A program made the translations under genes and the position numbers. Below are positions 5,030 to 24,854 of a stretch of 64,000 nucleotides of DNA, piece by piece. Within the stretch, counting starts at the first letter, position 1; every line of letters starts with the position of its first letter. Source of the stretch: Casuarius casuarius (Eukaryota; Chordata; Aves; Casuariiformes; Casuariidae); assembly GCA_003342895.1 (NCBI GenBank), contig PTFA01000020.1, positions 6,031,644 to 6,095,643 of the forward strand, in the 5' to 3' direction. A model generated the notes under the pieces. It saw only the letters and a list, made by a program, of their open reading frames with translations. It had not been told where the DNA came from and made no database searches.

Positions 5030-7190
5030 TTGGATTTATTAGTTGTGGACTCCTCACTCCTCATTTTTGAGTAAGCTATAACAGCAGCGTAGAAAGCCAT
5101 CCCTATTTTTAATTTTTCATGGATAACCTTTTTCACTGTGGCATCAATAAAATAAATACTAATTTACAGATTACTAGTCCCAAGATGCTAATGACAAGTT
5201 GCTAAATAGCATAAGACAATCAGATTTATCACTCCATCTGGCGGAAGCAAATGCTGAATATTTGCATGAACAATGGCCATGAAACAGAGACATTTTGTCA
5301 TTGTTTTGCATGATCACTATGAAGAGGACCTGAAGGAAATAATGCTGTTTTTATATCCGATCATTCTCCAGATGCATTTCTTGACTTGGAGTCTAAGACC
5401 AACTCCTCCCATCAGTTGTTCACTACCTTCTAACACAATCTCATTGCTCCAAGTCATTCCAGCAGATAGTTAGAAACCTCTGGAAAAATGCCAATTCACG
5501 TATTTTCAGGAATGATGGAAAAACTACCTCTCATTGGATAACGTTGTAAGAGTTTTAATGAAACTGAAGTTGTGTTATATTGTTTTATACCTTTTATACA
5601 GAACAGTTCCCTCAGTATAAAGTGAATTATGAATTCATAAGTCTTCTGCCCCTCCATTTTTCCTCAGGAAATTCTAAATCCTCAAGATTATAAAACACTT
5701 TGCCCTTCACTTCTAATAAGTCAAAATATTGAAGTCCTATTATGCTTTCCTAGGGCTCAAGTTACATAGAAAAAAGTGGGAGAGCTTTAATCCCTACAAC
5801 AAGCCTGCAATGAGCCTGTGGGGAGGCTGTTTATGGCAAAAGTAAAAGAAACTTTGTACTACAGATCCAGTCAGAGCCCTCAAGCAGACTGTTCGTCCCT
5901 TTGAAATATTTTTTCTTTCCTCTCACTTTAGTCTATCTTTGCATAATCTCTTTTATTTTGTTCAAGTGAAGCAGCAAGAAATTCTCCCTCCTCTTTTTTT
6001 CCCCTCTCTCCTTTTTTTTAATTGAGAAGAACTGCTGGTACTCAGCTTCTGGTGGGAAAAAACACAGACTGAGGCACAGTCCTGGCTCACTTCTCCCACA
6101 TTATTCACTCTGATGCAGTTAGAAGCCAATGTGCACTAATTGCTGTGATCTCTCCATTTGGCTTTTAACTTAAGTAGCCATCTGTAGGAGAATCTCGGCC
6201 GCTTTCAGCAGCCAGAAGCACTTGAAAACGGCAGCCCCCTAACATTGTTTAATTTTTACAACTTTGAGGTCACCAAAGACCACTGTTTCAATGAAATTCC
6301 ATAGGATGGGCTTGGCTGGATGATTTGTTTCTGCTTTAGGATTTAATTTGAACAATATGGACTTTTCCCCATTAGCATAAAATAAATCAGCACTTTGCAC
6401 TAGTTTCCCACGCATCACTTTCAACAGGCTGCCAACATTAGGATCATGTGGGTAGATGACAAGCACCCAAACTGCTTATATCTATTAGAGTCCTTTGGTC
6501 ACATCAGCTCTTGGTTTAGATCCTCCAAGTTACATATCACTATTAGTTATTTCCACAGTCACCAGGTTTAATGTACACATGCACCTTGTAATTCAGCCGC
6601 ACAGCGTATTTAGTTATAAATTCTAATCAGGTAGCATAGACTCAAATAATACAAAACATTTTCCCTTAATAATGGTGTTATTTCAAATACTATAGCTGTA
6701 CTTGCCTAATTTCAATGAGAACAAACATCCAAATTCATATTTTCCTCCCCCAGCTTTCCATATTCCTGTTAGCACAAAAAATGCTGCTTTATATATAACA
6801 ATTTTGTTCCATAAATGTAACTGAGATAAGTTTAACATTTATTGAACTAGAGTCTAGTTATTGCAGTTCAGCTTCAAAATACTGCAGGATTAAACAAATA
6901 ATCCAAGTTAATAATGGTAAGCCATGGAGCTAGTTGGAAAAACAAGGATATTTTTCCATGAAAGATTATCAGGTTGCTTCTCTCCCCCCATGCCCCTCCT
7001 CTACCAGGCCATATGAGGCATCTCAATAGGACAAGCAAATTTATTAGATTTATGCAAAAAGCAAAAAAGGAGCGTGTTCTAGGTGCTCCTACCTCTCATC
7101 AGCTGTATCAGCCCGCACCCTCACCCGTCACAAGGCAAACAAGCTTGCATGGTGTGTGGACGGTTACATTTCCCTCAGAAAGCCACCTCC
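5030..7190. other. Non-coding interval
   Basis: AT-rich sequence with pyrimidine runs (about 5,985-6,022). I see no family-recognisable reading frame, repeat or RNA gene in it. Confidence 0.55.
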
Positions 7191-7470
7191 ACGAAGCCCT
7201 GCAGGCTGCGGACTCCCCAGCCCTGGGGCCGGTGCACTGCTTCGCGACATGGCCGCCGCCGGGGCGCGACATGGCCGCCGCCGGGGCGCGAGGCCCTCTC
7301 CCGGCATGGCTCGAGGGCCATAGTGCCCCAGGCGCCCTCCCTGTGGCCACCCACCTCCTCGAGCTTCCCACCTCGACCACATGACACGACTCACCATGCC
7401 ACCTGGGAAGACAAGCCCCGTCGAGCCTGTCTCCTCGGTAATGGCGGCCCTGCCTCCTCTCTCCCCCCAG
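7190..7470. promoter_or_regulatory. CpG-rich patch with 22 bp tandem duplication
   Basis: Base composition changes abruptly from about 37% GC flanks to a block dense in CpG and GC. Two copies of a 22 bp unit (7,244-7,265 and 7,266-7,287) each carry GACATGGCCGCCGCCGGGGC. A further ATGGCGGCC lies near 7,441. Vertebrate CpG islands usually mark promoters or first exons, and ATGGC(G/C)GCC motifs resemble YY1-type promoter sites. Open reading frames run through the block on both strands, which is expected from GC richness alone. I cannot assign a gene or a direction. Confidence 0.5.
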
Positions 7471-7999
7471 GACCTGCTGACCCACCCACCCTGGCCTGCT
7501 CACAAGTCTTTTTTTTTAGCCATTTTCTACCCAAAAGAATGGAAGCAGTAACTTGCATCATGCTGCAGGATGTGGCAGCAAACCCTTTCAAAGGGCCAAA
7601 TGGCCTTTTTATGGCAAGATGCCAGATGCCACAGCTGGCTTGAGTAAAGCTAATTTACTGACTAAGCTGACGCCTCAGTGAAGGTCAGCAAAGACTTTTC
7701 TTAAACTTTTGCCACCAGGGAGAGCTCAAATAAGACAACAAATTTCTTATCTATGGTAATAGATACGCTGCTGTGTAACACTCGGTACGTCTGCATCTCA
7801 ACAAGTTGTTGACCGATTTAAAACAAATAAACAAATAAAAGTTAGGCCAAAGTTTTCCATTATATCTAGTCCTGTTACATCTCTGACGCTACATCTGATA
7901 TCGTGAAATAACTAGGCAATACTGCCAGAGGTGTCTTATTAGTAAAAGGCCAATACGCTGGCATAAGCAGAGTATTTTCTGCGGCTGGAACGGTAACGC

Positions 8000-8460
8000 A
8001 GAGACGAAGGTTGTAGCAGCGCCTCGTCCCCGCTGGCAGCCTGGCTGGCGCGCGGAGGTGATAATCTCACCGGAGCAAGAACGGCCTCCGTGCGAGGCCT
8101 GTTTCGTGATTAACGCTGACTGTATGCCGAGGAGAGAAATCCCTGCAGGTTGGAGAGTTCGGGTCCGAGAAGCTGCCAAAAGCCCTGATAAAGCAGCCAC
8201 TGTTAAGACACGAGAGTGCAAGAATTGTAATATCGATGCAGGTTGCCTGAAATGGCCTGCGCTTCCCCCTCTGGGCTGGCCGTCGCTGCAGGGCAGGATC
8301 CCTTGCACGGCCACCCTTTCTTTGGCATGCTTTTTGCACAGTGGAGCCCCACGGCCGCTGCTGTCAGCGCGCGCCTCCATTGCCACGCGGGAGGAGGAAA
8401 CGCGGAAAGCTGCCTCGCACAGAAGCTACGTGAAGTTAGTCGCAAGCACCCCCACGGCCA
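8000..8460. promoter_or_regulatory. Second CpG-rich patch, possible first exon on minus strand
   Basis: This second GC and CpG-rich block is separated from the one at 7.2-7.5 kb by an ordinary AT-rich stretch, so the two may be parts of one island. On the minus strand, GCTCCG is followed by GTGAGA (intron side at 8,070-8,065), a good 5' splice site. It would end an exon lying between about 8,071 and 8,450. This could be the first, possibly non-coding, exon of a minus-strand transcript. No recognisable protein is encoded, and the long open frames on both strands are attributable to base composition. Confidence 0.4.
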
Positions 8461-11400
8461 GGCTTCAGGCTCGGTGCTTGATGCATTTCCTCACATGCAA
8501 AACAATGCTAACCAAGTACATATGGGTTTTAGATGTTCATCATGACTTTTGCATACCAACAAGCCGCTTAAAAATAACCATGTTCTTTGCATTCTTTTGT
8601 GAAATGGATATGCCCTAAACTATTGATGAACTAAGACACAGAATACAAATGTTTGGGGGGATTTACAAGAAAAAAAGGAAGAAAAAAGTAACCAGAAATT
8701 GATCTATGAACTATGAAATATACAGAGGAAAAGTCTGTAATTTCTGACTTTAGCAGCAGTAGACAGTATTGGCAATCTCATGGGTATGCCTGTTCTGATG
8801 AGATTTTCTACCCACAGGTTTGCAAACTCAAGTAGAGGTTCAAAATATTTACAAAACGTTTAGAAAGACAGGCTACCACTCAGCTTTCTGCACAAGTGAA
8901 ATATTTATTCTGTCTGTGTTAAGGCTCTTTACCTTTACACAAACATTTCTGCAATCATCTTTACAGATCTAGCTATCTCCAGTCCAAATTATCTACAATG
9001 TTTCTTGTCTAGACCAGTCTAGGTATGTAAACTGTATTTTTATATATCATCTTTAGTTCCAAGAAAGGTGGACTTGCTGCAGAAAGAAGTGAAATATGTA
9101 TCTAAAAGTTCCACTAAAACAAACTGCAAATGTTTTTCTAAAAACCAATACAGGTTAAATATGCACTTTTTTTTCTAAGCACTTCATTTTTCAATTGGCA
9201 GCTGTATCCAAATTACTTGGTCTAACCCCAAAACAACACCTATATAGAAGCAGCAGAATTTCATGCAGAAAGTTTTTTTGGAAATTAGGGGATTTTTCTT
9301 ACTTTACAAAGGTAGATTAAACAGTTCTTTTTTTATATATAAAAAAAATAAGATGCTGTCAAACTGCTCATTGCTGAGGTCAGATACAAAAATATAGATG
9401 CTCCACATTCAAATTTGAATTTTTTCTTATGTAGGAAATCATATTGTGCAATTGTGTTAGCAGTTTCAATTGAATCAAATATTGAACTAAAAAAGCAGAT
9501 TCAGATTTTGTTTTAACATGTGATCATTTTCAGTGTATCAAGTTGGACAGTGTCAATTCAAGCACAGCTGCAACCTCCTTGGAAGGAAAATCTTCCTTTC
9601 CTGCATTTGCCCCAGATTCCAATGCTGCAATAGCTCAGAGATGTTTTTTTATCTTGGTAGGAGTGCAATAAGGAATGTCTACAGAATGTGCATATGTTTG
9701 TAGAGTAAATTAGAAACGGAAAAAATGGGTAATTTCTGGATTTTTGGGGAGGAAAGGAGAAAAACTTGTGCCATAAACAAGGATTTGATTAGAATGAAGA
9801 AATCTCATTTTTCCAAAGAGGAAAAAAAGTAAGCTTCACTTGCAGATCTTCCATGAAAACATTTGTGTGGTCTTCATCATTTCAGTCTCTCTCTAAAGAG
9901 CGATAGCTGCGATTTACGAGATTGTCTGACCTGGTCTTGAAATTGGAACTCTTCCGTAGCCAGTTTAATTCCTTAATTCCGTGCCAACCAAGTAAAGACA
10001 AATTTGATCAAAAAGCTATTGCACCTGCATGTAATCTTTCAATAAAATCTATAAAAAACCATAGCAATAGACCAAAAATAAGACTTTAGATGCACAAAAC
10101 AACTTGGCAAGCAAAAAAGTAGCTGCAGTCATGTATCCTTGTCTTATCTTCACTGCATCTTCTAACATAATCATCCTCTAAAGCACATATAGAACATGTT
10201 ACTGAATGTCTGCAAATATTTTACATTATTCTAAAGTATTATTCTAAAGTCTCTTAGTGATGTTAAGATGGTTGGGAGCAGAACAGGAAAGTAAGATGTT
10301 TTCATATCAAAACAAGAAATAACCTGAATTAATAAAATGAAATGAAATGAAAAATTGGTTAGGGTTGAACCAAAACACTTTATTTTTGTCTGATTTTCAC
10401 TGGTTTTGAAACTTCTAGCTGGTTTATGGCTTATTTTTACTTTCCTTTTTTCAGCCCCAAAAGGAAAAAGCTTAGTTAAATATAAATAAATGTAGAAATG
10501 AAACCTTCTACAGTTTTTCAAAATAGCTATTTCATGTTTAAAATGAAATGTTTAATTGTCTTCAAACTCCCCTTTCCTCTCTAGTGTGGCTGAACCTATG
10601 TGCCAAAGTAGACCTTGATTTTTAAGTACTTTAGTATTCTTCATGCTTATTGATAGGGTTATGAAGCAATATAAGAGAGCAGGGGCGGCTGTCTCAGAGA
10701 ACATGTAAGTGGATTACACTAGAGGGAAAGATTCTAATACATAAAAGCAGTATTATCTAGTTGTTATGAGTGCTTTTCAATTGTATCTTTCAAAGCATCT
10801 TTTAAAGAGAATCAAGGTCCTTAGTAGGAGGCCTACTATTTTCTAAATAACAAAAACATCATCTACAAGGAGCATTTTAGCGGGCAAGCACTGACAATGG
10901 AAAATAATTATAAATAAACTGCTATATTCATGATACCTTCTTAAAAGAATATGGGGACAATCCCAAACAATTCTAGTAGCTGACTAGAACAACAATGAAA
11001 ATATTCAGACAACTTATTTTATTTTACTGAAACAGAAACTGGCATCTGAATATACAGCTATGAAAAAGCCACCCCCTAACAAAATGCAAGTGTCTGAAGC
11101 TCGGAAGCATTCATGTGTGTCAATACGTGTGTCTGTACGCTGAGATCAGGTATTTTGAAATACCAGCTGAACGCTCAGGTATCTAGTTGAACAGTTGCAT
11201 GTCTCAATTCCCCATTTTGGGCATGCTTTAAATATGTTAGATATGTGGATGTTTTTGCCAATTCCTAGTTTAATCTGCTTTCACTGACAGAGAGGTAAAG
11301 ACCTAGCCTACATATTACTCCACATATAATTAAGGCACTAAGCCAGGAGGTCGGTGAAAGAGTGAAGGGAAGGGGTAGAGAATGTGGTTCTTTTAAATTA

Positions 11401-20886: not shown

Positions 20887-20892
20887 TATTAT
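20887..20892. repeat. Target site duplication, left copy (TATTAT)
   Basis: TATTAT immediately precedes the TG that opens the 5' LTR and is repeated exactly at 24,849-24,854 after the 3' LTR. Six-base duplications are characteristic of alpha/betaretroviral (class II) integrases. This proves a single integration event for the whole 3,956 bp unit. Confidence 0.95.
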
Positions 20893-21130
20893 TGTAGGGG
20901 CAGACAGCGAGGGATTGGACAAGATAGAGTTCAGGAGCCAAAAGCCTTGGGAGGAATAAAAAGCAGTATGTAGATAAGGTAGTAGCTGCACGGGATGAGA
21001 AGGAGTGATGATGGGAACTTGACCTTCGGGAAAGTACCGATCCGGGCTACAGCTTATATATAGGGCTTGCTTGCTTGAATAAAGTTGATTCTGATCCAGC
21101 ACATCGGAGTCCGTGAATCAGACCGCCACA
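20893..21130 (+). repeat. 5' LTR (238 bp)
   Basis: Begins TGTAGGGGCAGACAGCGAGG and ends GACCGCCACA, giving TG...CA ends. TATATATA at 21,055-21,062 is the promoter box and AATAAA lies at 21,078-21,083. With the hexamer only about 16 bases past the TATA box, the transcription start must fall near or after it, so the hexamer sits in U3 and R is very short. This compact layout is known from avian alpharetroviruses. It differs from the 3' LTR at position 3 (T/C), at a CpG (CAGCGAGG against CAGTGAGG) and in AATAAAAAGC against AATAAATAGC. Confidence 0.97.
21055..21083 (+). promoter_or_regulatory. LTR promoter TATA box and poly(A) hexamer
   Basis: TATATATA (21,055-21,062) is followed by AATAAA (21,078-21,083). 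The same pair recurs in the 3' LTR at 24,773-24,780 and 24,796-24,801, unchanged. Both promoter and polyadenylation signals are therefore intact as sequence motifs. Confidence 0.85.
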
Positions 21131-21132
21131 AA

Positions 21133-21150
21133 TGGCGCCCGAACAGGGAC
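21133..21150 (+). other. Primer binding site, tRNA-Lys3 type
   Basis: TGGCGCCCGAACAGGGAC lies two bases after the 5' LTR. This is the exact complement of the 3' end of tRNA-Lys(UUU), the lysine-3 primer. Chicken-type alpharetroviruses normally use tRNA-Trp, so this element belongs to another class II (ERVK-like) group. Confidence 0.95.
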
Positions 21151-21321
21151 CGAAGACTGACTTCGTCCAGGGCTGTAGAGGCAGCGGTTAGCTGAACCGG
21201 TGGCGGAGCCCGGCTGGACAAAGAGCTGCTGAAAGGAAGCAGAAGGGGAGCCGCTGAAAGGAAGCGGCATTGCGCGCAACAGGTTACCTACCGCTGGACG
21301 GAGGTAAGCAGCCGGGAACGC
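21151..21321 (+). other. Retroviral leader with splice donor and repeated GCTGAAAGGAAGC
   Basis: The untranslated leader between primer site and gag. GCTGAAAGGAAGC occurs twice (about 21,228-21,266), and GCGCGC near 21,272 could serve as a dimerisation palindrome. GGAG followed by GTAAGC (intron side from 21,304) is a strong 5' splice site, placed just upstream of gag as in other class II retroviruses, where it would generate subgenomic RNA. Confidence 0.7.
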
Positions 21322-21936
21322 GTGGGAGTCGTGGGAAACGGAATCTCCCCGCAAGATAGGTCCGTGCTAAACGTAATGCAAAAGACTTTGAAACAGCACG
21401 GCAGAGATATACCCCCCCAAGATCTCCAAATGTTATTGATGTGGGCACGCTCGAACTGTCCCGAGGTGAATTCTAGCACGATTTATAGCCTCGGTATGTG
21501 GGACTCAATCGGAGTTAAGCTCTGGGACGCGGCAACAAGAAACGATAAGACGGCGGCAGGACTTTTAGCCCCGTGGCGTACCATGCTTGAGACCCTGAAA
21601 GAGCATAGCAAGAAGAAAGCACAGGGACCGGAGGCACCTGCAGCCCCCACAGCACCTCCGTCAAGCGACACGGTGGTGGGGGCGGTGGGTGGACGGGACT
21701 CCCCAGGAAACAACCCAGACAATCCATTTGACCCAGGGCCGATCAATCCGGAACAGGAGCCGGACCTCTATCCACCTCTTAATGCGCCTTGCTGTCTCCA
21801 TCTTACGGCCCCTTCGGAACCACCGCCCCCCCGCAAGAGACGGGGCCACCCGCGAGTGCCGACTGCCCACAACCCCCCCACTGACCCGGCCTTCTGGGAA
21901 GGATCCATCGCCCCAGGGCTGCTTGGCGGGGCGTGA
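21322..21936 (+). pseudogene. gag: Gag remnant, matrix-like N-terminal part
   Basis: An open frame of 204 codons directly after the leader, ending in TGA at 21,934-21,936. Its first part resembles the retroviral matrix fold of class II viruses, with two helical stretches and a WDSIGVKLWDAA-like segment around residues 60-72. A proline-rich, disordered-looking part follows. YPPL (21,769-21,780) fits the YPxL late-budding motif that recruits ALIX. The codon at the expected start is GTG, followed by a Gly-Val-Val-Gly sequence typical of an N-myristoylated gag after Met, so the initiator appears to have been lost. Capsid, nucleocapsid and everything to the middle of pol are missing. The frame is the same as that of the VAPB segment downstream. 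Confidence 0.85.
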
Positions 21937-22090
21937 CTACACCGGCCGGGGATGCCCCCCGCCTGCCTTCTTCCCTCCCTCCTTTCCTCCCTGCCTTCCT
22001 TCCCCTCCCGCCCGGCCCTTCCTCTCTCCGCCTGGTGCCGCCTCCGCCTGGTGCCGCCACCGCCGAGCAGCAGGAGGCAGGAGGAGGAAC
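21937..22090 (+). other. Gag/VAPB junction zone, mostly VAPB 5' UTR
   Basis: This is a GC and pyrimidine-rich stretch (CTTCCCTCC repeats, then CCGCCTGGTGCCGCC twice) ending in GAGGAGGAAC before the VAPB start codon. Its character is that of a vertebrate CpG-island 5' UTR, and I infer it came with the captured VAPB mRNA. The exact crossover from gag cannot be placed. It lies somewhere between about 21,880 and 21,980. The gag frame reads through it without further stops after the TGA, and includes an ATG at 21,952. Confidence 0.6.
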
Positions 22091-22599
22091 ATGGCGAAAG
22101 TGGAGCAGGCCTCAGCCTGGAACCGCAGCACGAGCTCAGATTCAAAGAGCCTTTCACAGATGTTGTCACCGCAAACCTGAAGCTCGGCAATCCTACAGAC
22201 AGAAATGTGTGCTTCAAAGTTAAGACCACAGCACCACATAGATACTGTGTAAGACCTAACAGTGCAATTATCCATGCAGGAACGTCAGTTAATGTTTCTG
22301 TGATGCTACAGCCTTTTGACTATGATCCTAATGAGAAAAGTAAACACAAGTTTATAGTTAAAAAAAAAAAAGAAAAAAAAAGAAAAAAAAAAGAAACAGT
22401 CTATGCTTGCTTCAGCTGATACTTTAGATATGGAAGCAGTATGGAAAGAGGCAAAACCAGAAGAACTCATGCATTCGAAACTTAGGCGTGTGTTTGAGCT
22501 ACCAACAGAAAATGATATGCCTTATGACATAGAAATGAGATTGTATCTACAACTGCAACAAAGACAGATTCTTCTGTAATGTCTAAATCAATTAAGTCC
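22091..22599 (+). pseudogene. VAPB: Captured VAPB cDNA fragment (MSP domain), broken
   Basis: VAPB is an ER tail-anchored protein whose N-terminal MSP domain binds FFAT motifs of lipid-transfer partners at membrane contact sites. The start ATGGCGAAAGTGGAGCAG (22,091-22,108) gives MAKVEQ, and [44 protein letters not shown] and [18 protein letters not shown] follow. After a 37 bp A-rich insertion, [14 protein letters not shown] and KLRRVFELP continue to about residue 160. The coiled coil and TM anchor are absent. The match is to VAPB rather than VAPA (for example NPTDRNVCF). There are no introns, so the source was spliced mRNA. Breaks: one base lost just after the start (about 22,107-22,112), the A-rich insertion, and a small deletion near 22,530. 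Because of the first loss, the MSP part is in frame with gag, not with its own ATG. Lys87 of the FFAT site is kept, while Met89 is Ile. Confidence 0.94.
22360..22396 (+). repeat. 37 bp A-rich insertion inside the VAPB segment
   Basis: Runs of 8-12 A separated by single G residues sit exactly between the codons for VAPB residues 90 (Val) and 91 (Gln). VAPB homology resumes immediately after. The length is not a multiple of three, so it shifts the frame, which closes at 22,417-22,419. It resembles an expanded A tract or an inserted poly(A) fragment. Confidence 0.85.
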
Positions 22600-23277
22600 C
22601 TCTTCGGAGGCACCCAACTCGAGCTGTAATTACTGCACATGTATCATTAAAATTTAATTATTTAATTTGCTTTGATTTGGCTCTGAACTTTTCTGTGGGA
22701 ACCTAAGGTCAGGCCCTGTTATGGTGGCCAACAAGCCTAATTTCCATAACAGTTTGGCGACCCAGGTGGGACCCTAGGCAACCACTGTCGGGGCCTCTCG
22801 TCTCCAAACGATCATCTGGCGCCATCGGGTGAGTTCACCTGGGATCTTTGGCAACAAGAGGCACCGAAAAGGTGAGTCTTAAATTCCTGCCTAAATTCTA
22901 AATTCTGGTCTGGTAGCAGTGCACTGTAAGGGGTACGCGGGCTGGCCACGTAAGGCGTACCAGGGGATGGGTGCGAGTCCCATCCCGAGGGTTTGAGTGG
23001 GTTTTAAGTCCCAGCTCGGTCCAGCCGGAGAAGGGGTGCGCAGCCTGATCAGCCTAAGGCGCACTGCAAGACTGTAAGACAGAAGTCTAGAGTCACTGTG
23101 ACTGGTGTGAGCGTGAACAGTACTGGGTGCGTGAGTGTGTATAGCCTGGGAACCGGCCAGGGTGCCTGTCAGCAGGGCTGATGAAGCCGCCTGCTGCGAA
23201 GGGAGAGCAGTCCTAGCAGTTAAAGACTTGGGTGGTGTGAGTGCAGTTCCCAGAGAGTGAGAGAAAGAGAGTGTGTG

Positions 23278-23280
<3 letters not shown>
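22600..23280 (+). mobile_element. Second retroviral leader (R-U5, PBS, 5' untranslated region)
   Basis: VAPB homology ends near 22,599. The next 150 bases contain ATTAAA (22,646-22,651) and a GT-rich tail, and close with CCATAACA (22,744-22,751). Four bases on, TGGCGACCCAGGTGGGAC looks like a primer binding site. About 500 bases of GTGAG-rich, stop-filled sequence follow, with GGTGAGTTC and GGTGAGTCT donor-like motifs, and then the A tract. This order (R-U5, CA end, PBS, leader) is that of a retroviral genomic RNA 5' end, and it differs from the Lys3 leader of the provirus itself. I infer a second virus, possibly gammaretrovirus-like, copackaged and joined by template switching. The family assignment is uncertain. 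Confidence 0.6.
22755..22772 (+). other. Second primer binding site, tRNA-Arg-like
   Basis: TGGCGACCCAGGTGGGAC begins with TGG, as required to pair with a tRNA CCA end. It resembles the complement of tRNA-Arg(UCU)-type 3' ends, with a few differences. It follows the inverted pair TGTTATGG (22,717-22,724) and CCATAACA (22,744-22,751). The second of these would be the 3' boundary of the foreign U5. Confidence 0.5.
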
Positions 23281-23330
<50 letters not shown>

Positions 23331-23331
23331 A
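23281..23331 (+). repeat. Poly(A) tract, A37-G-A13
   Basis: A 51 bp A tract separates the second leader from pol-derived sequence. It directly follows GTGTGTGATT. It may be a captured poly(A) tail, an expanded A run native to that leader, or a template-switch product. Homopolymer length may also be affected by assembly error. Confidence 0.9.
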
Positions 23332-23449
23332 GGTTGGTCCAACTGTGTCAGGAGGATTGCCCATTCCTGACAAAGGAGGAAAACCCAGCAGAACCCAGCA
23401 AGGGACTTTTGATCAGCAGGCTAAATTGTCCCATGATTTTTTTTTTTTT
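23332..23449 (+). other. Unassigned retroviral segment before integrase
   Basis: After the A tract there is a stretch open in one frame (CQEDCPFLTKEENPAEPSKG) that I cannot place with confidence. It may be the RNase H to integrase linker or foreign sequence. It ends in a T13 run (23,437-23,449) adjoining the integrase zinc-binding part. Confidence 0.4.
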
Positions 23450-24250
23450 CTTCACGAAAATGCAAAAGCGCCACAAAAAACTTATCATATCACAAGGGAC
23501 TAGGCCCAAAACATTATTCGAAGTTGCCCTGATTGCCAAAATGTATCCCCGTTACCACCCTACTTAGGGACCAGCCCTCGAGGCCTGCAACCGTGCAATG
23601 TCTGGCAGACAGACGTTACCCATTATCCCTTATTCGGAAGATTGAAATATGTCCATGTCTCTGTAGATACCTTTTCCCATTACGTTGTCACTACTGCCTA
23701 TGCTGGGGGGAAAAAAAAAAAAGAAAGCCGTGATGTATGTCGTCACTGGCTTGCCTGTTTTGCCACGATGGGAGTTCCCACTCTAATTAAAACTGACAAT
23801 GGTCCCGCGTACACTGCACAACGAACGTGGGCATTTCTCCAAACCTGGGGGGTCACTCATGTGACCGGAATTCCCTATTCCCCAACTGGCCAGGTAATAG
23901 TGGAATGTACCCATCGTACTATAAAAAACACGCTTGAAGAACAAAAAAGGGGGAATAGCCCCGGTGCCGCCCCACAAGAGCAGCTACGGAAAGCCTTATA
24001 TGTTCTCAACCTCTTAAACTGTTATGCGGACCAAAGTGCAGTTAATAAGCATTTCTCATGCCCTACGTGGCGAGAACAGCCTCGGGTTCACTACAAGAAC
24101 CTGGAAACAGGTCAATGGAGTGAACCAGTAGACTTAATAATGTGGGGGAAAGGTTATGCTTGTGTCTCCACAGGTAACGGGCCTCGTTGGATGCCTGCAC
24201 GGCTGATTCGACCTGTTGACGCATCCCTCGAAACACCAAACGAGGACTGA
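23450..24250 (+). pseudogene. pol: Integrase domain of pol, defective
   Basis: Integrase inserts proviral DNA into host chromosomes. In frame 2 the zinc-binding part shows candidate His codons at 23,453 and 23,486 and a CPDC pair at 23,525-23,536. The catalytic core follows: WQTD with Asp at 23,612, TDNGPAY with Asp at 23,795, and GQVIVECTHRTIK with Glu at 23,903. The last two are 35 residues apart, the D,D35E signature. A C-terminal part with GYACVSTGNGPRWMPARL follows, then TGA at 24,248-24,250. Defects are a TAG at 23,501-23,503 within the zinc-binding part, an A-rich expansion at 23,711-23,727 that adds lysines, and no upstream protease or reverse transcriptase. It is class II in character and cannot be made as a normal Pol protein. 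Confidence 0.9.
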
Positions 24251-24263
24251 GAGCCAGTTAAGA

Positions 24264-24545
24264 TGAGCCCGTTTCAGGGTATTTTCTGGCAATATCTGCC
24301 TGCCTCGTGCAGGGTCAATATCTATTCATAAAAGCTTACAGCGACTACATGACCTTACTAAGTTGTAGATAGAATCAGAGTGGAACCCTTTTGAGGGATA
24401 GGACTGGATGTTAGGTTTGGGGTCATGGGTTAAGAAGGTACTGGCGTGTGGATTGGTAACCTTGCTAAGATTTCTAGCCCTTGCTATCTACCTCCCTTGC
24501 TTAATAAGCCTTATGCAGAGAATGACTCGAAGGGCTTTGCATTAA
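24264..24545 (+). pseudogene. env: Env remnant, mainly TM C-terminal end
   Basis: An ATG at about 24,264 starts a short frame that may be the env signal region, but nearly all of env (SU and most of TM) is deleted. From 24,330 a frame shows LQRLHDLTKL, a stop, then ESEWNPFEG, another stop, and from 24,402 GSWVKK followed by a hydrophobic stretch and LMQRMTRRALH before TAA at 24,543-24,545. The hydrophobic run with basic tail is the membrane anchor and cytoplasmic end of a class II retroviral TM protein. Two internal stops and the deletion make it non-functional. Confidence 0.75.
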
Positions 24546-24596
24546 GTCCTTGCTGTACAAATACACGCTGCACTGGCAATATTTAGTTTAGAAAAT

Positions 24597-24610
24597 AAAA
24601 AAGGGGGAGA
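24597..24610 (+). other. Polypurine tract
   Basis: AAAAAAGGGGGAGA directly abuts the TG of the 3' LTR. This is the plus-strand primer site for reverse transcription, intact and in the correct place. Confidence 0.93.
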
Positions 24611-24848
24611 TGCAGGGGCAGACAGTGAGGGATTGGACAAGATAGAGTTCAGGAGCCAAAAGCCTTGGGAGGAATAAATAGCAGTATGTAGATAAGGTAG
24701 TAGCTGCACGGGATGAGAAGGAGTGATGATGGGAACTTGACCTTCGGGAAAGTACCGATCCGGGCTACAGCTTATATATAGGGCTTGCTTGCTTGAATAA
24801 AGTTGATTCTGATCCAGCACATCGGAGTCCGTGAATCAGACCGCCACA
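24611..24848 (+). repeat. 3' LTR (238 bp)
   Basis: Begins TGCAGGGGCAGACAGTGAGG and ends GACCGCCACA. It is the same length as the 5' copy, with three substitutions and no gaps. Promoter and polyadenylation motifs are retained, so it could still drive or end transcripts outward into the flank at 24,849 onward. Confidence 0.97.
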
Positions 24849-24854
24849 TATTAT
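24849..24854. repeat. Target site duplication, right copy (TATTAT)
   Basis: Exact copy of 20,887-20,892, directly following the CA end of the 3' LTR. Confidence 0.95.

What the first reader, a model, noticed from the sequence alone, without database searches (positions are those of the whole stretch)
20887..24854. Endogenous retrovirus that captured a spliced VAPB mRNA
Seen directly: a single provirus bounded by identical 6 bp duplications and 238 bp LTRs, with an intronless stretch inside that reads as VAPB from its start codon to about residue 160, plus apparent 5' UTR. Known: retroviruses can capture host mRNA by template switching during reverse transcription, and CR1 machinery rarely makes mRNA retrocopies in birds, so an LTR element is a plausible vehicle. 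Inference: this is a transducing retrovirus frozen in the germ line. VAPB, a membrane contact-site tether that also interacts with RNA virus replication machinery, is not a gene I know to be carried by a retrovirus.
Basis: partly seen in the sequence, partly recalled or inferred. Interest (0 to 1): 0.95.

Follow-up and report, generated by a model that had tools for sequence, protein, structure and literature searches.

The report
Bird retroelement family carrying captured VAPB
A retrovirus-like element in a flightless bird copied part of the messenger RNA of the cell's own VAPB gene into itself, later added a piece of a second retrovirus, and then multiplied to dozens of copies in which the VAPB piece shows no sign of still coding for a protein.

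Summary
Window 20887-24854 is a provirus with 238-bp LTRs (3 differences), TATTAT duplications and a spliced VAPB segment (codons 1 to ~158). It is not a single frozen virus: in the same genome 40 of 40 scored matches to the VAPB piece were positive (94 candidates), and two searches together give 78 places, some weak. The 20 best-scoring other copies share its mosaic; 19 have LTR pairs, with unrelated flanks and mostly perfect 6-bp duplications, so they spread by retrotransposition. Earlier-stage copies carry VAPB to codon ~215 joined in frame to RNase H at 12 bases (GCAGCTGCTGTC) found both in host VAPB and in a relative without VAPB: a direct fossil of template switching. Later the 5' end was exchanged, and VAPB codons ~158-215 plus RNase H were replaced by the R-U5-PBS-leader of a second retrovirus. 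VAPB is a passenger: an A-rich insert and a 4-nt deletion break it, and variation among copies ignores codon position (44:46:45). Two residues point to an emu-lineage source; three emu protein records belong to the family. ERV host-mRNA capture is known (crocodilian KIT-ligand, nectin3). New here: the gene, the bird host, the amplified non-coding cargo and the surviving intermediates.

The parts
20887..20892 (+). target site duplication TATTAT, left
20893..21130 (+). 5' LTR, 238 bp
   Evidence: LTR pairs in 19 of 20 fetched copies, two of them with a partial second LTR
21133..21150 (+). primer binding site of tRNA-Lys type
   Evidence: sequence; tRNA assignment recalled
21151..21714 (+). leader and N-terminal gag of a second, exchanged type
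   Evidence: L029, L041 and the VAPB-less relative L056 carry a different sequence here
21196..21936 (+). gag open frame (stop to stop); weak Gag_p10 match
   Evidence: E=0.063, below the curated cut-off
21715..21945 (+). gag part shared with VAPB-less relatives
21950..22090 (+). VAPB 5' UTR by inference (left edge uncertain by about 25 bases)
   Evidence: host exon 1 not found in the assembly
22091..22595 (+). VAPB spliced coding sequence, codons 1 to about 158, frame broken
22360..22396 (+). A-rich insert at codon 90/91; at the same place in the other copies examined
22596..22751 (+). R-U5 of a second retrovirus, starting at its inferred transcription start
   Evidence: independent LTR fragment in L022
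22755..22772 (+). second primer binding site, tRNA-Arg-like
   Evidence: sequence; tRNA assignment recalled
22773..23411 (+). leader of the second retrovirus, with an A-tract at 23281-23331
23412..24250 (+). integrase region of the betaretrovirus-like parent (open frame 23504-24250)
   Evidence: Pfam rve 3.6e-21 and IN_DBD_C 1.6e-11; cassowary POK6 73% identical over 59%
24251..24610 (+). 3' remnant (env transmembrane end by inference) and polypurine tract
   Evidence: no Pfam match for its ORF
24611..24848 (+). 3' LTR, 238 bp
24849..24854 (+). target site duplication TATTAT, right

Best explanation
A betaretrovirus-like (ERVK-type) endogenous retrovirus of an emu-lineage (casuariiform) bird co-packaged a spliced VAPB mRNA. 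During minus-strand DNA synthesis the reverse transcriptase, copying pol RNA, switched at 12 identical bases (GCAGCTGCTGTC) to the VAPB mRNA, copied it into its 5' UTR and switched back into gag, deleting the rest of gag, pro and RT. The resulting non-autonomous element exchanged its LTR-leader-gag N-terminus with another relative. It also replaced VAPB codons ~158-215 and RNase H with the R-U5-PBS-leader of a second retrovirus, by a switch at the 5' end of that virus's RNA. This form was copied in trans to dozens of sites. VAPB travels as non-coding cargo. Shown: intronless VAPB inside LTR/TSD units, the shared mosaic, earlier and later forms, the 12-nt junction, absence of codon-level constraint. 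Inferred: RNA co-packaging, the direction of each switch, trans-mobilisation by helper relatives.
For: Same mosaic in the 20 fetched copies (the 20 best-scoring of 39), apart from assembly gaps in L009, L023 and L026, a deletion in L025 and truncation of L010. LTR pairs in 20 of 21 copies (window included); 6-bp duplications perfect in 15 of 20, one mismatch in 3, two in 2. Flanks unrelated between copies. RNase H piece: 12 of 12 candidates match; 6 joined to VAPB, 5 without VAPB, 1 in an N gap; host VAPB, VAPB-less pol (L049) and chimera share GCAGCTGCTGTC at the breakpoint. Second-virus sequence starts about 30 nt after a TATA-like box in an independent LTR fragment, with 11 of 13 bases shared with VAPB there. 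Rooted tree puts the 23 late-stage copies (window included) in one clade inside the early ones (SH-aLRT 76, bootstrap 92). Residues T131 and I164, otherwise seen only in emu VAPB, are in early copies. Three emu records are members.
Against: Host exon 1 was not found in the assembly, so the gag/VAPB-UTR junction is placed only to about 25 bases, the UTR is inferred, and the VAPB start site was not tested. The parent of the second leader rests on one LTR fragment; the genome search with that leader did not complete. Clade support is moderate. The order of the 5' exchange conflicts between VAPB tree and 5' type (L040 versus L041). The A-rich insert, present even in the earliest copies, is not explained by the model. 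The fetched copies were chosen by score, so they favour the late form. No RNA data.
Confidence: 0.9

Rival explanations
1. VAPB arrived as an ordinary LINE/CR1-type retrocopy that landed in a provirus.
For: VAPB is intronless, and an A-rich tract lies within it.
Against: The segment keeps its 5' side but lacks its 3' end; the A-tract is inside codon 90/91, not at the end; the 3' edge is a 12-nt microhomology with pol; the same edges recur in independent insertions.
Confidence: 0.03
2. The copies are DNA-level duplications of one chimeric locus.
For: The copies share the same internal junctions.
Against: Mostly different 6-bp duplications (L022 happens to share TATTAT with the window) and no flank similarity among the 20 LTR-bounded copies; LTR divergences from 0.4 to 5.3% in 18 pairs.
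Confidence: 0.02
3. The element is a functional transducing virus whose VAPB protein (a soluble MSP domain) was selected.
For: The early-type copy C259 keeps the host-like start region, and VAPB is in frame with RNase H at the junction. Four family matches are free of stops over about codons 8-138.
Against: Variation by codon position 44:46:45 (codons 8-90) and 15:26:14 (91-136) in 21 copies; A-rich insert and 4-nt deletion in all 21.
Confidence: 0.05
4. Assembly artefact.
For: Homopolymer tracts and N gaps occur in several copies.
Against: The same chimera in many contigs and family members among emu records that this assembly does not encode identically.
Confidence: 0.01

Closest known systems
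CrocERV31 with nectin3 and CrocERV29 with KIT-ligand (PMC4299795; passages and one section read)
   Same: Endogenous retrovirus lineage that captured a host mRNA, then multiplied in the germ line; nectin3 replaced env.
   Different: There the captured frames are reported as intact and under purifying selection. Here the VAPB frame is broken and unconstrained, and the capture breakpoint with a VAPB-less relative is preserved.
LTR-mediated retrocopies by template switching (Tan et al. 2016, not held; read through passages of review PMC5408686)
   Same: Microsimilarity-guided switch between LTR-element RNA and an mRNA; partial mRNA copied; reported for chicken too.
   Different: Here the chimera became an amplified element family with later recombinations.
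Maize Bs1 retrotransposon (passage in PMC5408686)
   Same: LTR element that took up pieces of cellular genes.
   Different: Plant element with three cellular genes (passage) and few copies (recalled); here one vertebrate gene and dozens of copies.
Rous sarcoma virus src and walleye epidermal hyperplasia virus cyclins (section read in PMC4299795)
   Same: Retroviral acquisition of a host gene.
   Different: Viruses whose captured protein is active; RSV is named there as replication competent.

Membership tests
Betaretrovirus-like ERV (ERVK, class II) | 6-bp target site duplication, TG...CA LTRs | tested here: met
Betaretrovirus-like ERV (ERVK, class II) | integrase related to ERVK pol | tested here: met
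   many named hits are ERVK/POK6 bird proteins (best 120 of 243 listed)
Betaretrovirus-like ERV (ERVK, class II) | Gag p10 domain | tested here: inconclusive
   E=0.063, below cut-off
Betaretrovirus-like ERV (ERVK, class II) | tRNA-Lys primer binding site | tested here: inconclusive
   sequence present; tRNA identity recalled, not computed
ERV-mediated host mRNA capture | intronless host sequence between the LTRs of one integrated unit | tested here: met
ERV-mediated host mRNA capture | breakpoint at microhomology between viral RNA and host mRNA | tested here: met
   12 of 12 bases with L049, 11 with L050 and L051, 10 with L052
ERV-mediated host mRNA capture | chimera inherited through further retrotransposition | tested here: met
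LINE-type processed pseudogene | 3'-complete copy ending in poly(A) with its own duplication | tested here: not met
Transducing retrovirus with an active host gene | captured reading frame kept by selection | tested here: not met
Non-autonomous LTR element | lacks reverse transcriptase and most of env, yet multiplied | tested here: met
   piece map leaves no room for pro or RT and only a short env-like end
Non-autonomous LTR element | mobilised in trans by a helper | not testable with these tools
   VAPB-less relatives exist; no activity data

The most novel reading that the evidence does not exclude
The chimera became a more successful parasite than its VAPB-less relatives because of what it kept and gained: a short Gag still under constraint (third-position excess confined to the start of gag) together with a borrowed second packaging leader and a host-mRNA spacer. 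It would then be a three-source element that uses two viruses' packaging signals and perhaps produces VAPB-matching RNA that affects the host gene.
Probability: 0.15. Interest if true: 0.8.

Novelty: new variant of a known kind. Interest (0 to 1): 0.6.

Why it matters
Retrogenes are described as scarce in birds (title of Suh 2015, seen in a reference list), so LTR elements are a possible main route for copying host mRNAs there. Here the sequence of events survives in one genome: host gene, VAPB-less viral relative, first chimera, intermediates and amplified end product, with a base-exact breakpoint. That makes the template-switch model directly checkable and gives an example of a host gene fragment multiplied as passive cargo. 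It also shows that three emu database records named VAPB or VAPB-like belong to a retroelement family.

Tried and rejected
A VAPA origin was rejected. Relatives in viral contigs: none for integrase or VAPB. Solved-structure search with a gag piece: no match up to E=1. Pfam scan of ten further window ORFs, one of them in the element's 3' end: nothing up to E=0.1. Differing interiors of L009, L023 and L026 looked like other mosaics but are almost wholly N. The exon-1 pattern found only a family copy. Literature: 'VAPB' with 'endogenous retrovirus' gave 18 papers, judged by title and abstract start only (ALS, neurodegeneration and other topics); none is about a capture by those. The three-term searches gave none. 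An apparent conflict remains: by VAPB sequence L040 lies outside L041 plus stage 2, yet L041 has the old 5' end and L040 the new one; recombination between copies is a likely reason. On recheck one residue first numbered 162 was corrected to 164.
Full report
OBSERVATION. The window holds a provirus exactly at the coordinates given: TATTAT duplications at 20887 and 24849, 238-bp LTRs with 3 differences, a PBS and a polypurine tract. Inside are a gag frame, a VAPB segment, a second retroviral R-U5/PBS/leader, an integrase region and a short remnant. VAPB identity is firm.

A FAMILY, NOT A SINGLE PROVIRUS. The window lies in a 1.19-Gb assembly. The VAPB piece (22091-22599) gave 94 first-look candidates; 40 were scored and all 40 match at 88-100%, the window's own copy included. 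The LTR gave 331 candidates, 40 scored, all at 96% or more, the window's two included. A protein search with emu VAPB gave 139 matches, host gene and VAPA-like gene included, among 150 scored of 171 candidates. Merging the listings, without the host gene and the VAPA-like gene, gives 78 places, some of them weak. All 20 carry the window's mosaic, apart from N gaps (L009, L023, L026), an internal deletion (L025) and a truncated copy without LTR (L010). Counting the window, 20 of 21 have LTR pairs (partial second LTR in L025 and L026). Their 6-bp duplications are perfect in 15 of 20, with one mismatch in 3 and two in 2, and 600-bp flanks do not match between copies. They are therefore independent insertions. 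LTR divergence in 18 usable pairs (L025 and L026 left out) runs from 0.4 to 5.3%, median 3.0%, window 1.3%. With recalled rates of 1-2e-9 per site per year that is about 1 to 27 million years, and 3 to 6 for the window copy.

WHERE VAPB CAME FROM. The host gene lies on C356; exons 2-6 were read. Its protein (codons 20-243) differs from emu VAPB (P0121) at one residue. Emu and this host share T131 and I164. Among 120 listed VAPB-type proteins T131 occurs only in emu P0121 and the emu family member P0213 (90 readable at that site; rhea has K); among 127, I164 occurs only in P0121 (60 readable, few of them birds). Four early-type copies (L029, L038, L040, L041) have T131, and all six early-type copies have I164. 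So the source was a VAPB of the emu lineage; kiwi and cassowary VAPB were not among the named sequences I looked at. Emu record P0241 finds at best 93% in this genome (137 of 137 candidates scored), so the host is probably a casuariiform other than emu; its name is inferred, not shown. Emu records P0148 and P0213 share derived residues and frame breaks with the window, and P0241 does so by eye, so the family is in emu too.

THE CAPTURE BREAKPOINT. Some copies carry more VAPB. In C673, C797, C755, C360, C259 and C105 VAPB runs to codon 215 and continues in frame into RNase H; in the first five no second leader was found, and C105 was seen only over a short stretch. A search with the RNase H piece of C673 gave 12 of 12 candidates: 6 joined to VAPB, 5 without VAPB (one of these, L053, with a different upstream sequence) and 1 in a gap. 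At the breakpoint host VAPB, VAPB-less pol (L049) and the chimera share GCAGCTGCTGTC; L050 and L051 differ at one base, L052 at two. The chance of 12 identical bases at a random point is about 6e-8. This is the expected mark of a switch during minus-strand synthesis from pol RNA to VAPB mRNA.

LATER EVENTS. C673 (L029) and C299 (L041) keep a leader and gag N-terminus 78-79% identical to the VAPB-less relative L056, whereas the window, L040 and the late copies have another type: an exchange near window 21714. In late copies VAPB stops at 22595. Position 22596 starts a match to an independent LTR fragment in L022, about 30 nt downstream of a TATA-like box, so the junction lies at that virus's inferred RNA start. 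VAPB and the fragment agree at 11 of 13 bases there, GTYCCTCTTYGGA. The segment ends near 23411, where pol resumes. In a tree rooted with the host gene, the 23 late copies (window, 20 fetched, L031, L032) form one clade (76/92), L041 is its sister (83/90), and L029, L038, L040 and L042 lie outside; L039 was left out for lack of sites. Differences from the host common to the copies with letters there are silent changes at codons 35, 50, 55 (one exception) and 111, plus D116H.

NO CODING ROLE FOR VAPB. All 21 copies have the A-rich insert at codon 90/91 and the 4-nt deletion (L024 also has a 4-nt duplication beside it); 14 of 21 have the 1-nt deletion near codon 7. The early copies have the A-rich insert too, but L029, L038, L039 and L040 lack the 4-nt deletion. 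Minor variants by codon position are 44:46:45 and 15:26:14. Integrase is also flat (116:86:113, 16 copies). Only gag 21331-21630 shows a third-position excess (31, 32, 50 variable sites of 100 each, P=0.0015), carried by its first half (15, 13, 28 of 50, P=0.0008; without CpG sites P=0.004); the second half and the rest of gag show none. Seven overlapping pieces were tested, and exchange with active relatives could cause the signal.

PLACE AMONG KNOWN SYSTEMS. Host mRNA capture by ERVs is documented: CrocERV29 KIT-ligand and CrocERV31 nectin3, with frames reported under purifying selection (PMC4299795, passages and section 15). LTR-mediated retrocopies are reported for chicken (review PMC5408686, passages). 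CR1 activity is very low in emu and cassowary, whose divergence is put at about 28 million years (PMC8665684, passages). No VAPB-carrying retrovirus was found in print. The window element works like these and meets the membership tests for ERV host-mRNA capture, but not for an active transducing virus.

LIMITS. Host exon 1 was not found in the assembly; the left VAPB edge is uncertain; the second virus's parent rests on one fragment; the A-rich insert is unexplained; dates use recalled rates; fetched copies were the best-scoring ones.

Noticed in passing
22360-22396, 23281-23331, 23711-23722, 23437-23449: Expanded A-rich (and one T-rich) tracts in VAPB, leader and integrase of one element; the VAPB tract measures 26 to 49 nt in 20 of 21 late copies (one not measured) and about 110 nt, largely of AAAAG units, in L041. 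Origin unexplained.
   Followed up: partly
21331-21480: Third-codon-position excess of variation among copies, the only such signal found in the element.
   Followed up: partly
L022 488-605 (minus strand): Independent fragment of the second retrovirus's LTR about 2.4 kb upstream of a family copy.
   Followed up: partly
G000:C359:941949-942304: A decayed VAPB-like stretch (58-86% identical, stops) that may be an older retrocopy outside the family; counted among the 78 places.
   Followed up: no
G000:C558:120101-120367: A VAPB-type match listed inside an open frame of 2790 residues; not examined.
   Followed up: no
emu records P0148, P0213, P0241: Database proteins named VAPB or VAPB-like are family members; P0148 appears to treat the A-rich insert as an intron (inference).
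   Followed up: partly
6962-8618: Stretch with long open frames on both strands and no Pfam match.
   Followed up: partly
G000:C356 upstream of 919102: Exon 1 of the host VAPB gene was not found by the protein or pattern search.
   Followed up: yes
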